Assembly (NCBI GenBank): GCA_947464015.1
Contig: CANHVE010000004.1
Location: 1 to 36,403 of the forward strand
Length of the DNA stretch: 36,403 nt
Direction of reading: 5' to 3'
Source: Saprospirales bacterium
Lineage (GTDB): Bacteria; Bacteroidota; Bacteroidia; Chitinophagales; CAMDFR01
Below the pieces are notes generated by a model. It worked only from the letters and a program-made list of their open reading frames with translations. It ran no database searches and had not been told where the DNA came from. Positions 28,899-35,181 of this stretch are shown piece by piece; positions within the stretch are counted from its first letter, which is position 1, and each line of letters opens with the position of its first letter. Position numbers and translations under genes: made by a program.

Positions 28899-31832
28899 AT
28901 GTTGTTTTTGATCAAATCAAGTCTACTTAAATTAGCCGCAATAAGCTGTTTTATTCAGCCTATTGAGCCTTTAGTAAACCCAATGCCACCCAAAGTATAT
29001 GAAGAAAGTAATAAAACTACTTGGGTTAATAATCAATATAATAATTTAAACTTAGATGAAAAGATAGGTCAACTATTTATGATAGATGCCTATACAGTTG
29101 CTGATAAACAAAACAAACAAGCCGTTCAAGATTTAATCAATAATTATAAAATTGGAGGCATCATCTTTTTTAAAGGGAATGCACTCACTCAAGCTCAATG
29201 GACCAATGATTTTCAAAGAAGTTCGAAAGTGCCTTTACTTATTGGCATTGATGGAGAATGGGGCGTGAATATGCGAATAGAGAATACTATTCAATATCCT
29301 CATTGTCTAACACTAGGGGCTATTCGTAATAATCAGTTGGTATATGAAGCGGGTCGACAAATAGGACTTGAATGTAAGCGTATGGGGATTCACGTAAATT
29401 TTGCTCCTGATGTAGATGTCAATAATAATCCGCTCAATCCAGTAATCAATGATCGTTCTTTTGGGGAAGATAAATACAATGTAGCAATTAAAGGGATTAG
29501 CTTTATGCAGGGTATGCAATCAGCTGGGGTATTAGCTTGCGCGAAACATTTCCCCGGACATGGTGATGTAAGTGACGATTCGCACTTTTCATTACCAGTA
29601 ATCAATCATACCAAAGAACATTTGATGTCGCTCGAATTGTATCCTTTTCGTGCCATGATTAATAATGGAGTGAGTAGTGTAATGGCTGCACATCTGAATG
29701 TACCTGCCCTAGACAATACTGGTATACCAACTTCCTTGTCTGAAAAAGTCACCAAATTTTTATTGCGAGACACTTTTGGTTTTTCAGGATTGGTTTTTTC
29801 GGATGCATTAAATATGAAAGGAGTGAGTGCGAATTATACGAGTGGTCAACTAGAAGTAAAAGCATTTCAAGCCGGGAACGATGTATTATTATTTTCACAA
29901 AATGTGCCTTTAGCGATTGCAAAATTGAAAGAGGCAGTATTGAATGGTACAATCAGTGAAGCCGCTTTAGAACTAAGTGTAAAAAGAATTTTAGCAGCTA
30001 AGTATGATGCAGGTTTAAACGAATATACACCTATCGATTTAAATAATATTCAAGCTGACTTGAATTCTAATCAAGGTTTATTATTGAAACAACATTTATT
30101 CGAAAATGCAATTACGCTTGCCAAAAACAATAAGAATGAAATTCCATTTTTAGATTATAAAAACGAAAAATTTGCATTGCTCGAAATTGGTACAAATAAT
30201 TATAAAGACATGCAAACAATGCTTAATAATTATGCGGTGGTTGATTACTTTCATATGGATAAAGATGCAGATGCGAACGAGCGTGCAGCCATGTTAAGCA
30301 CTTTATCAAAGTATGATCATGTAATTGTTTCGATGCACGACATGAGTAGAAAAATTGCCATAAATTATGGTATTTATGATAATAGTATCGAATTTGTATA
30401 TAAGCTAGAAACCAATACACGTGTAACTTTATGTCTCTTTGGTTCGCCTTATAGTGTCAAAAAATTTGAACAAGTAAATACTATCGTAGTTGCTTATGAA
30501 GATAATGAATATGCTCAAAGAGCTTGTGCACAAGCCTTGTTTGGGGGTATTCCTATAATGGGTAAAATGCCTGTAAGTGCAGGTTTATCAGTGCCTGTGG
30601 GTTCTGGTGTAGTGATTGATACTACCTATCGACTCAAATATACCGTGCCAGAAGAGTTACAATTGAGTTCTGAAAGTTTTAATAAAATTGATCAAATTAT
30701 TCAAAATGCAATCAATAATGGAGCTACTCCTGGTGCACAAATTTTAGTAGCTAAAGCAGGTAAAGTGATTTATAATAAAGCCTTTGGTTTTGCTGATTAT
30801 AGCAAGACACAAGCTGTGAAAACTTCTGATTTGTATGATATCGCTTCTTGTACTAAAATATGTGCTACTACCATTGAAGCAATGAAATTATATGATGAAG
30901 GCAAGCTCGATTTAAATAAAAAAGTAACTGATTATTTAAGTTTATCTTCCAATGCTACGATTAAAAATATTGCCATCAAAGATTTGCTTTTGCATGAAGC
31001 TGGACTCACCCCATTTATTCCATTTTATAAAAAGACAATAGATGATCCAAATTTAAAAGCCTCTTTTTATCGAACGACACAAACAGTTGGTTTTACCAAT
31101 GCAGTAGCTAATAATATGTATATCGATAATAATTATGCAGAAACGATGTGGGATAATATTGAGCATGCCGAATTATCTGGAGTGCGAAAATTTGTTTACA
31201 GCGATTTGAGTATGTATATCACTCGACGAGTAGAAGATCAATTGACAGGAACGAGTATTGATAAATATATGTCGGATAATTTTTACAGCAAAATGGGTTT
31301 ACAACGAATTACTTATAACCCATTACAAAAAACAGCTCTTAAAAACATTATGCCTACTGAAAATGATCGCTTATTTAGAATGCAACAAATTAGAGGTTAT
31401 GTGCACGATCCAGGAGCAGCAATGATGGGAGGGGTTTCAGGACATGCAGGATTGTTTTCTAATGCCAGTGATATCGCTTCCTTAATGCAAATGTTATTGA
31501 ATGGAGGTAATTTTAATGGACAACATTTCTTATCAAAAAATACGATTGATTTTTTTACTAAAAAACAAAGTACTATCAGCAGAAGAGGTTATGGATTTGA
31601 TAAACCTGAACCCGACCCCAATAAAACCAATCCTTGTAGCGATTTGACTCCTATGTGTGTATATGGACATACAGGCTTTACAGGTACTTGTATTTGGGTG
31701 GATCCAGAAAATCAACTGATTTATATTTTCTTAAGCAATCGGGTTTGTCCGAATGCCGAAAACTGGAAATTAGTAAGTATGGGCGTTCGCTCTGATATTC
31801 AAAATGCTATTTATAAAGCGATAGGAAAATAG
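28899..31832 (+). CDS. Bifunctional NagZ-like GH3 beta-N-acetylglucosaminidase fused to a beta-lactamase-fold serine hydrolase (AmiE-like)
   Basis: GH3/NagZ: IDGEWGVNMR, CAKHFPGHGDVSDDSHFSLP, LVFSDALNMKGVS. Serine hydrolase: IASCTKICAT (SxxK), FVYSDLSMY (YxD/N), YGHTGFTGT (HTG). Confidence 0.93.
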   Translation: MLFLIKSSLLKLAAISCFIQPIEPLVNPMPPKVYEESNKTTWVNNQYNNLNLDEKIGQLFMIDAYTVADKQNKQAVQDLINNYKIGGIIFFKGNALTQAQWTNDFQRSSKVPLLIGIDGEWGVNMRIENTIQYPHCLTLGAIRNNQLVYEAGRQIGLECKRMGIHVNFAPDVDVNNNPLNPVINDRSFGEDKYNVAIKGISFMQGMQSAGVLACAKHFPGHGDVSDDSHFSLPVINHTKEHLMSLELYPFRAMINNGVSSVMAAHLNVPALDNTGIPTSLSEKVTKFLLRDTFGFSGLVFSDALNMKGVSANYTSGQLEVKAFQAGNDVLLFSQNVPLAIAKLKEAVLNGTISEAALELSVKRILAAKYDAGLNEYTPIDLNNIQADLNSNQGLLLKQHLFENAITLAKNNKNEIPFLDYKNEKFALLEIGTNNYKDMQTMLNNYAVVDYFHMDKDADANERAAMLSTLSKYDHVIVSMHDMSRKIAINYGIYDNSIEFVYKLETNTRVTLCLFGSPYSVKKFEQVNTIVVAYEDNEYAQRACAQALFGGIPIMGKMPVSAGLSVPVGSGVVIDTTYRLKYTVPEELQLSSESFNKIDQIIQNAINNGATPGAQILVAKAGKVIYNKAFGFADYSKTQAVKTSDLYDIASCTKICATTIEAMKLYDEGKLDLNKKVTDYLSLSSNATIKNIAIKDLLLHEAGLTPFIPFYKKTIDDPNLKASFYRTTQTVGFTNAVANNMYIDNNYAETMWDNIEHAELSGVRKFVYSDLSMYITRRVEDQLTGTSIDKYMSDNFYSKMGLQRITYNPLQKTALKNIMPTENDRLFRMQQIRGYVHDPGAAMMGGVSGHAGLFSNASDIASLMQMLLNGGNFNGQHFLSKNTIDFFTKKQSTISRRGYGFDKPEPDPNKTNPCSDLTPMCVYGHTGFTGTCIWVDPENQLIYIFLSNRVCPNAENWKLVSMGVRSDIQNAIYKAIGK

Positions 31833-32021: not shown

Positions 32022-33662
32022 ATGAGAAAACTATTACTTGCATTACTTTGTATCTCTAATTTTTTATTTGCACAAAAAAACATTAGCGTTCAATATGAAC
32101 TATTTGAGAATAAACAATTAGTTCCTAATCGTTCCATTGTAGTAAATGCCGATAGAATGAATTGTAATATTATTAATTCATCAACCTCCGAACAGTTTTA
32201 TATCGATTATACGAATAAAGTAACCATTAAATCTGCTAGTTATGATGGGGTCAAGTATGCCGTTTATACACCTTTCGATTCATTGATAGCACCAGTTTAT
32301 AATAATGAACTAGATACTATTCTTGGTTACCATTGTAAAAAATGTACCTATACAATTTTTTCAAATAAATATGAAGTTTGGTATACTTCTGAACTTGGTC
32401 AAAATGCTTGTCCAGCTATAGCCTTTGCACCTCCCACAGGTACCGTACTTAAATATGTGATAAATGGTAATAGAATGGTGATTGCAAAAGCTATAAGCAA
32501 AGCAGATAAAATAGAAGCATTTAATGCTAGTGGAGTTGTTAATATTAATGAACCTAAATATGTGGCGGCACAGATTAAATCGAGATATACAACTATACAG
32601 GTATTTGATAAGGAGCAATTAAATTTTGATAATGCACTCAGCAAACCTGAATCATTTGTATCCAATACAACCTATCATTTATGTAATGGAAATATATTGC
32701 TTAAAAAAATCACTTTACCTCCCAATAGTTCACAAGGGATGTATTATATCAAACTTACCGATTGGTCGAATGGTGATGCTTATGATCGAGTAGGTTCGGT
32801 ATTTACGATACAAGCTGATAAAGAGACGAATTTATTAACTGCCTTACAAAAAGGAATTCAAGCATTACCTACTTTTATTGATAATCAGAATGAAGTATAT
32901 CAAGGAATCGTATGTACCAAAAACTATGCACCTTGTACAGAATTAATGCGCTTTTTTACGCCATTTGGTGTTGGATATTTTAATAATAAAAGAATCATTG
33001 ATGGTTATACTTGGAGCGATTCCGTAGTCTACAAACAAGAAGTAACATCCTTAATTCCTTCTAATCAAAAAGAAATATGGATAGGTGTTTATATAGGTAA
33101 TTATGATAAAGGTGGACATAAAGTTAGTTTAGAATTAGATTTTTATCCAGAACCTGATATGGATACCATTCATAAATTTATTGCCCCATTATTTAATACC
33201 GTAAATATTATGGAAGCCTGTGGTCAAAATTATGGTAGATTGTTTGAACATGATACATTAGAATTTGATGTCGATATTACAGATAGTTTACATGATGTAC
33301 AATTGCTTTTCACCACAACAGGACATGGTGGTTGGGGAGGAGGAGATGAATTTAATCCTAGATTAAATACAATTCTAATCGATAATAAACAAGTATTTGA
33401 AATTACACCTTGGAGAACAGATTGTGGAACGTATAGATTATCTAATCCATCTTCAGGTAATTTTCCAGATGGTCTTTCATCCAGTGATTTTAGTCGTTCT
33501 AATTGGTGCCCAGGAACATTAACACCTCCTTTTATGATTCCATTAAACAATTTAAATATCGGAACTCATCATTTTAAGTTGATTATTAAACAAGGTAAGA
33601 GTGAAGGTGGTGGTTTCAATCATTGGTGTACCTCTGGTGTACTTGTAGGCTTAAAAAATTAG
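32022..33662 (+). CDS. PNGase F-related secreted protein with N-terminal GLPGLI-like domain
   Basis: PNGase F-like: YDRVGSVF, TTTGHGGWGGGDEFNPRLNTILID, CGTYRLSNPSSGNFPDGLSSSDFSRSNWCPGTLTPPFMIPL. N-terminal DTILGYHCKKCTYTIFSNKYEVWYTSEL resembles the GLPGLI core (LGYxCKKAxxxFxGRxxxAWYTxxI). Confidence 0.82.
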   Translation: MRKLLLALLCISNFLFAQKNISVQYELFENKQLVPNRSIVVNADRMNCNIINSSTSEQFYIDYTNKVTIKSASYDGVKYAVYTPFDSLIAPVYNNELDTILGYHCKKCTYTIFSNKYEVWYTSELGQNACPAIAFAPPTGTVLKYVINGNRMVIAKAISKADKIEAFNASGVVNINEPKYVAAQIKSRYTTIQVFDKEQLNFDNALSKPESFVSNTTYHLCNGNILLKKITLPPNSSQGMYYIKLTDWSNGDAYDRVGSVFTIQADKETNLLTALQKGIQALPTFIDNQNEVYQGIVCTKNYAPCTELMRFFTPFGVGYFNNKRIIDGYTWSDSVVYKQEVTSLIPSNQKEIWIGVYIGNYDKGGHKVSLELDFYPEPDMDTIHKFIAPLFNTVNIMEACGQNYGRLFEHDTLEFDVDITDSLHDVQLLFTTTGHGGWGGGDEFNPRLNTILIDNKQVFEITPWRTDCGTYRLSNPSSGNFPDGLSSSDFSRSNWCPGTLTPPFMIPLNNLNIGTHHFKLIIKQGKSEGGGFNHWCTSGVLVGLKN

Positions 33663-33669
33663 TTTACTA

Positions 33670-35181
33670 ATGATTTTAACTTTTATAAAAAATAATATAA
33701 GACCATTACTATTACTGATACTATTATCTGGCTTATGTTTTTTTTATAAAATCCCACAACATATTCAAGATCGTCCATATGGACAACATATTTGGCGTCA
33801 GTGTGATGGGGCAAGTTTTGCATGGACTTATACCCATGTAAGTATGAATTTTTTTGAACCAAGACTTATCAATGTATATAATGCAGATGCAAAAATGTGT
33901 CCCGAATTTCCTATTGTATATTATGTAGCTGCATGTTTAAATAAACTTTTTGGTTATCAAGAAGCCTATATTCGAATCATTCATTTAACATTTTTCTTTA
34001 TAGGCTTATTCGCCTTATCATCTATTGTTTTTCACTTAACCAAACATACTTTATTCTCCTTGATAATACCTTTATTATTATTTACAAGTACGATGTTTGT
34101 GTTTTATGGTCCCAATTTTTTACCTGATGTTGCAGCTATTTCCATGGGATTTGTAGGTGCTTATTTTTTGATGCAGTATAAAAAAACATACCTAAAAAGG
34201 GATGCGCTTTTCACAGTCATTGCTTTTGCATTATGTGGTTTACTCAAGCCTACTGCCCTGAATTTATTTTTTGCTTTAGCTATATTATGGACTTTCGAAC
34301 AAGTTTTTAATATTTCATTGAGTTCTAAAAAAAATATTTACCCGTTCAGATTTTTGGATTTTTTTTAGTGTCTTAGCTATTGTTTTTGCATGGTATATTT
34401 TTGCGATTAAATACAATAGTGATAATAAAAGTATTTATATGCAAGCCTTTATTATACCTATGTGGAAAGCATCGGAAGTGCCTATAACAAAAGCTTTTGA
34501 ACTTATTTGGCAAAACATATTAAACAATTATTCGGCTATATGCTTTTTTATATTGCCTTATTCTCACTTCTTATAAGCTGTTGTGCCATTAAAAAAGAAT
34601 CAAGATGGATAAGTTTATTTAGTTTCAGTATGTTTTTAGTACTAGGTATAAATTTGCTTTTTTTCTTTCATCAGATTTATCATCACGAATATTATCTGCT
34701 TGTGTTTTTCCCATTTGCTATCAGTTCTATTGTTTTAGCATTTTATTGGCTTAACCAGAGCGAATTCAAGTTTAGAAAACCTATTATTGTGCTAAGTCTA
34801 TTTTGCTTGATTATGATTGTAAATATGAATATGCATCAAACGAATCGTTATGTAGATAAATTGAAAAATCATTATCCATATGACGACTATTTTCAATCTT
34901 ATTATGGTGTCGATAAATTACTATCGCAATATGGAATTGATCCTAATGCACGTATTTGGTGTTGGGCAGATAACTCTTCTTCTATTTCGTTGTATTTAAT
35001 TGGACATAGAGGTTGGACTCAGTTTTATCATGCCGATGGCAGTTTAGCAGCTTGTAAAAAATATCAGATACAACATCTATTAATAAATACCGCCACAGAT
35101 AAGGACCAAGGAGAAATTCAATACTTGAAAAACGAGTTGGTTTTTGCTGAGAAAGGATTTGAATTATATAAAATTTATTAA
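33670..35181 (+). pseudogene. GT-C (ArnT/PMT, GT39-like) membrane glycosyltransferase split into ORFs 33670-34368 and 34507-35181 by two compensating single-base shifts
   Basis: Both ORFs are in the same frame. The gap 34369-34543 is open in the +1 frame with membrane-protein sequence (FFSVLAIVFAWYIFAIKYNSDNKSIYMQAFIIPMWKASEVPITKAFELIWQN). Homopolymers A8 (34327-34334), T8 (34359-34366) and T6 (34544-34549) lie near the joins. N-terminus has GQHIWRQCDGASFAW typical of the family. Confidence 0.72.

What the first reader, a model, noticed from the sequence alone, without database searches (positions are those of the whole stretch)
32022..33662. PNGase F-like deglycosidase with an N-terminal GLPGLI-like domain
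The C-terminal half aligns by eye with PNGase F. AYDRVGSVF corresponds to the EWDRYANVYV segment carrying the catalytic Asp, and GGDEFNPRLNTILID to AEWCFRTHTIAIN carrying the catalytic Glu, both retained. The region of the third acidic residue (TETWLAKG) does not appear conserved (GNYDKG). The first ~150 aa instead look like a GLPGLI-family domain (LGYHCKKCTYTIFSNKYEVWYTSEL) that has lost the GLPGLI signature itself. I do not know of this combination being described. It could be a glycopeptide-binding module on a glycan-removing enzyme.
Basis: partly seen in the sequence, partly recalled or inferred. Interest (0 to 1): 0.6.

Follow-up and report, generated by a model that had tools for sequence, protein, structure and literature searches.

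The report
Ordinary type II PNGase (PNGase F-II)
This gene encodes a well-known kind of bacterial enzyme that strips N-linked sugars, probably plant-type ones included, off proteins; its extra front domain is also known from crystal structures, but papers call that domain unique and here it proves to be the same family as the orphan "GLPGLI" proteins, with a fold that resembles the lipoprotein carrier LolA.

Summary
The catalytic Asp (D255) and Glu (E443, equivalent to E206) are kept, and the E118 position is a glycine (G359). The combination is not new. It is the type II ("group 2", PNGF-II) architecture solved as 4R4X/4R4Z in 2015 and 7ZGN in 2022: 38-39% identity along the chain, N-domain matching Pfam PF22252 (PNGase_F-II_N, 1.1e-14), and G359 as the type II hallmark that makes room for core alpha-1,3-fucose. 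Over 580 relatives turned up in genomes, mostly Bacteroidota. Both models then point to the LolA/EPDR1/VioE beta-clam fold, although papers call the bowl domain unique. The proposed glycopeptide-binding role has no support: published deletion of the domain changed neither activity nor specificity. Verdict: an ordinary new member, with a small unrecognised domain-family link.

The parts
32022..33662 (+). type II PNGase (PNGF-II-like), 546 aa
32022..32075 (+). Sec-type (SPI-like) signal peptide MRKLLLALLCISNFLFAQ; no good lipobox; read by eye, no signal-peptide program was run
   Evidence: sequence; helix 2-16 with low confidence in the model
32079..32546 (+). N-terminal bowl-like (NBL) domain = GLPGLI-family domain, residues ~20-175, mostly antiparallel beta strands
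   Evidence: PF22252 1.1e-14, TIGR01200 1.1e-7, hhalign 1.9e-17, strands
32550..32585 (+). linker helix, residues 177-188, in the same place as the C-terminal helix of stand-alone GLPGLI proteins
   Evidence: DSSP of the two models
32592..33143 (+). PNGase F N-terminal catalytic jelly-roll, residues 191-374
   Evidence: PF09112
33228..33647 (+). PNGase F C-terminal catalytic jelly-roll, residues 403-542
   Evidence: PF09113
32784..32786 (+). D255, catalytic Asp (counterpart of the PNGase F catalytic Asp)
   Evidence: invariant in 11 type II sequences and 80/80
33096..33098 (+). G359, type II glycine at the PNGase F Glu118 position
   Evidence: 80/80 Gly in type II relatives, Asp in two group 1 enzymes
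33213..33215 (+). E398, probable counterpart of PNGF-II Glu418
   Evidence: 77 of 80 Glu, 3 Asp; PMC9522356
33348..33350 (+). E443, catalytic Glu, equivalent to PNGase F Glu206
   Evidence: 80/80; alignments

Best explanation
The gene encodes a secreted type II peptide:N-glycosidase. The C-terminal double jelly-roll hydrolyses the GlcNAc-Asn amide bond of N-glycoproteins or N-glycopeptides using D255 with E443 and E398. Because residue 359 is glycine where PNGase F has Glu118, core alpha-1,3-fucosylated (plant and insect type) glycans should fit as well as ordinary ones. The product is exported by a Sec signal and has no C-terminal sorting domain, so it is probably periplasmic or soluble, and it serves glycan and peptide scavenging. 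The N-terminal domain is a GLPGLI/NBL domain with a LolA-like curved sheet, joined by a helix; it is not needed for catalysis and more likely positions or tethers the enzyme or binds a hydrophobic partner. Shown here by sequence and model: family, architecture, active-site residues, the G359 type II mark, the homology of the N-domain to GLPGLI. Inferred: activity, fucose tolerance, location, role of the N-domain.
For: Pfam domains; match along the chain to 4r4x and 7zgn, 38-39% identity and TM 0.76-0.87 for the AlphaFold model of pLDDT 81.7; active-site residues invariant; glycine versus Asp/Glu at the type-defining site (PMC9522356); the two relatives with Asp there (L025, L026) also lack the N-domain, as described for group 1. 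N-domain: all 11 type II sequences match TIGR01200, all 9 GLPGLI proteins match PF22252, a GLPGLI profile finds only PNGF-II and 7zgn in the PDB at significance, hhalign 1.9e-17, reversed-profile controls nil, and the GLPGLI model finds the same chains first.
Against: No enzyme assay. Identity to characterised enzymes is about 39%, and relatives differ in glycan range. The window's own N-domain scores below the TIGR01200 cut-off. The LolA similarity is structural only (TM about 0.35-0.48, no sequence signal).
Confidence: 0.93

Rival explanations
1. A glycan-removing enzyme with a newly acquired glycopeptide-binding module.
For: Extra N-terminal domain beside a catalytic module; accessory domains of glycan enzymes often bind substrate (general knowledge).
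Against: The domain is a standing feature of the type II group: present in 79 of the 80 pattern-selected relatives. Published work reports that removing it changed neither activity nor specificity (PMC9522356), and PMC12381499 describes an NBL-like module placed away from the active site.
Confidence: 0.07
2. A degenerate or inactive PNGase homologue kept for binding, since the third acidic residue is missing.
For: The E118 equivalent is Gly.
Against: That glycine is the type II mark in active enzymes; D255, E443 and E398 are all kept; no internal stops; 65% identical orthologue in the same genus.
Confidence: 0.03
3. About the N-domain only: it is a LolA/EPDR1-like hydrophobic-ligand carrier that anchors the enzyme to lipoprotein, lipid or an outer-membrane partner, as stand-alone GLPGLI proteins may do with their neighbouring outer-membrane barrels.
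For: Both AlphaFold models retrieve LolA, EPDR1 and VioE as the best matches outside the PNGase family with a plausible aligned length. Stand-alone GLPGLI genes lie beside an outer-membrane barrel gene (CarboxypepD_reg + Plug, or OMP_b-brl_3) on the same strand in about 31 of 36 loci.
Against: TM only 0.35-0.48; no sequence link to LolA. Type II PNGase genes do not share the barrel neighbour (1 of 80), so the partnership would have been lost or replaced.
Confidence: 0.3

Closest known systems
PNGase F-II / PNGF-II, Elizabethkingia meningoseptica (PDB 4R4X, 4R4Z)
   Same: Same two-part architecture, NBL domain, type II glycine, active-site residues; 38% identity over about 545 columns in the structural match.
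   Different: Sequence divergence; different host (a Bacteroidota genome whose same-genus relative is a Chitinophagales-type MAG).
B035DRAFT_03341 PNGase, Bacteroides massiliensis (PDB 7ZGN, 'Glpgli family protein')
   Same: Same architecture; group 2; TM 0.84/0.87.
   Different: That enzyme is encoded next to plant N-glycan CAZymes; here the neighbours are a GH3/beta-lactamase-like gene and housekeeping genes.
PNGase F, type I (PDB 1PNF, 3PMS)
   Same: Catalytic double jelly-roll, catalytic Asp and Glu206 equivalents.
   Different: No N-domain; Glu118 instead of Gly; 17-18% identity.
GLPGLI family (TIGR01200; PF09697 Porph_ging) and DUF4412 (PF14371)
   Same: Homologous to the N-domain.
   Different: Stand-alone secreted proteins; the GLPGLI family keeps the GLPGLI motif and is mostly encoded beside an outer-membrane barrel gene.
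LolA / EPDR1 / VioE beta-clam fold
   Same: Similar curved antiparallel sheet by Foldseek (fold described in PMC6363788).
   Different: No detectable sequence similarity; TM below 0.5.

Membership tests
Type II (group 2) PNGase / PNGase F-II | Both PNGase F catalytic jelly-roll domains | tested here: met
   PF09112 and PF09113, whole profiles
Type II (group 2) PNGase / PNGase F-II | Catalytic Asp and Glu (E206 equivalent) kept | tested here: met
   D255, E443
Type II (group 2) PNGase / PNGase F-II | Glycine at the PNGase F Glu118 position | tested here: met
   G359; Asp in two group 1 sequences; definition in PMC9522356
Type II (group 2) PNGase / PNGase F-II | N-terminal bowl-like domain | tested here: met
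   PF22252 1.1e-14; model superposes on 4r4z/7zgn
Type II (group 2) PNGase / PNGase F-II | Releases core alpha-1,3-fucosylated N-glycans | not testable with these tools
   needs an enzyme assay
GLPGLI family (TIGR01200), N-domain only | Score over the curated cut-off of 50 bits | tested here: not met
   24.6 bits whole protein, 31.8 bits N-domain; a type II relative (L021) reaches 66 bits
GLPGLI family (TIGR01200), N-domain only | GLPGLI sequence motif | tested here: not met
   PAIAFAPPTGTVLK in its place
GLPGLI/NBL superfamily | Significant profile-profile homology and same fold | tested here: met
   hhalign 4.2e-14 and 1.9e-17; GLPGLI model to 4r4x 2.0e-9
LolA-like fold superfamily, N-domain | Beta-clam fold | tested here: inconclusive
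   Foldseek probability about 1.00 but TM 0.35-0.48; no sequence signal

The most novel reading that the evidence does not exclude
The NBL domain of type II PNGases, the GLPGLI proteins and DUF4412 form one domain superfamily with the LolA/EPDR1 beta-clam fold. That would give GLPGLI proteins a fold, already solved inside PNGF-II, and a predicted role as hydrophobic-ligand or lipoprotein carriers working with the outer-membrane barrels they are encoded beside.
Probability: 0.55. Interest if true: 0.4.

Novelty: new member of a known kind. Interest (0 to 1): 0.22.

Why it matters
The enzyme itself is ordinary: one more type II PNGase, possibly useful for deglycosylating plant or insect glycoproteins. 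The by-product is worth a note. A domain that papers call unique and of unknown function is the same family as a very common orphan family of Bacteroidota (GLPGLI), and probably has a LolA-like fold. That makes the function of GLPGLI proteins testable from an existing crystal structure.

Tried and rejected
GLPGLI versus bowl domain as alternatives: rejected, they are one family. Sequence link of NBL, GLPGLI or DUF4412 to LolA: tried with hhalign, nothing. Functional link with the upstream GH3/beta-lactamase-like gene: the gene is near the PNGase only in the same-genus genome, where a further ORF lies between them, and in none of four other relatives, so rejected. A barrel partner for the PNGase as for stand-alone GLPGLI: found in 1 of 80 loci, rejected as a rule. 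The first genome-contig scan with the single protein found nothing; the alignment query found hundreds. No paper in the library joins GLPGLI or DUF4412 with LolA, or PNGF-II with LolA or EPDR1.

Full report
Observation. The open reading frame 32022-33662 on the + strand encodes 546 residues. Pfam finds both halves of the PNGase F catalytic module end to end (PF09112 1.4e-51, PF09113 1.8e-42) and, over residues 56-168, PF22252 PNGase_F-II_N at 1.1e-14. NCBIfam gives TIGR01200 GLPGLI at 1.9e-5, below its cut-off.

Active site. D255 lies in AYDRVGSV, E443 in GGDEFNPR. In the PNGase F chain (1pnf) the CAEWCFRTHTIAIN segment puts Glu at position 206 and IYTETWLAKG puts Glu at 118, counted from the alignment printed; one search aligns the window with 4r4x. 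The window has glycine (G359) at the 118 position. According to PMC9522356 this glycine (G380 in the E. meningoseptica type II enzyme) opens a pocket for core alpha-1,3-fucose and marks the group 2 enzymes, and another glutamate (E418) probably takes over the role of Glu118; E398 here is its probable counterpart. The distance G359-E398 is 39 residues, and 39 in the 4r4x chain, while the numbers printed in the paper differ by 38; I take this as a numbering slip but could not check it. Across 80 named relatives D255, G359 and E443 are invariant, and E398 is Glu in 77 and Asp in 3. Those relatives were drawn with peptide patterns that include GDAYDR, so the constancy of D255 is partly built in there; the 10 relatives found without patterns agree. 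Two relatives with Asp at the 118 position, as in group 1, also lack the N-domain.

Known architecture. The chain matches PNGF-II (4r4x, 4r4z) and the B. massiliensis enzyme 7zgn by sequence and by model over nearly the full length (AlphaFold pLDDT 81.7, TM 0.76-0.87, 38-39% identity). 7zgn is named 'Glpgli family protein' in the PDB.

N-domain. They are the same family. All 11 type II PNGases tested (window included) match TIGR01200 (best 2.8e-17), and 47 of 53 isolated N-domains do. All 9 stand-alone GLPGLI proteins tested match PF22252. A GLPGLI profile finds in the PDB only PNGF-II and 7zgn at significance. Profile-profile comparison gives 4.2e-14 and, with deeper alignments, 1.9e-17; reversed profiles give nothing. 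DUF4412 joins the group at 5e-10 to 5e-13. An AlphaFold model of a stand-alone GLPGLI protein (pLDDT 88.7) has PNGF-II and 7zgn as its first six PDB matches (2e-9 to 4e-8). Even the linker helix of the PNGase (177-188) sits where GLPGLI proteins have their C-terminal helix.

Fold. After the PNGases, the GLPGLI model retrieves the EPDR1/LolA/VioE group, and the full-length PNGase model retrieves the same group with a single-domain alignment length among its further matches. Their 11-stranded beta-clam binds hydrophobic ligands (PMC6363788). TM-scores normalised by the target are 0.37-0.48 and sequence profiles show no link to LolA, so this is suggestive, not shown. PMC9522356 calls the NBL fold unique and of unknown function; no paper in the library makes either link. 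Structure classifications such as CATH or ECOD could already hold it; I could not look.

Function of the N-domain. Removing it did not change activity or specificity of the E. meningoseptica enzyme (PMC9522356), and PMC12381499 suggests orientation of the catalytic module. Stand-alone GLPGLI genes are next to an outer-membrane barrel gene on the same strand in about 31 of 36 loci (19 downstream, 12 upstream), which hints at an outer-membrane partnership; the counts come from clusters of neighbours and may overlap by a few loci. Type II PNGase genes do not share that neighbour. I favour a positioning or docking role, with low confidence.

Surroundings. The upstream gene (28899-31832) is a GH3 plus beta-lactamase-like protein. 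It is near the PNGase only in the same-genus relative, not in four others, so no pathway link is claimed.

Verdict. An ordinary new member of the type II PNGase family, with a useful side result on the family of its N-terminal domain.

Noticed in passing
33670-35181, + strand: The gene downstream (PMT_2-like membrane glycosyltransferase) is split into two ORFs by two compensating frame changes (the frame moves near 34330 and back near 34510); either a broken gene or an assembly error.
   Followed up: partly
loci L027-L034, L042, L089-L117: Stand-alone GLPGLI genes lie beside a CarboxypepD_reg/Plug or OMP_b-brl_3 outer-membrane barrel gene on the same strand in about 31 of 36 loci.
   Followed up: partly
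L041/L066 (G016:C79) and L045/L060 (G021:C21): Single proteins match both GLPGLI (TIGR01200) and DUF4412 (PF14371), bridging the two families.
   Followed up: yes
L004, L015; L005: L004 and L015 are distant proteins with only the C-terminal PNGase half clearly recognisable (about 30% identity), a possible further PNGase group; L005 carries a PNGase F-like domain in a much longer protein.
   Followed up: no
28899-31832, + strand: Fusion of a GH3 glycosidase domain with a beta-lactamase/serine-hydrolase domain, 977 aa, 76% identical in the same-genus genome.
   Followed up: partly
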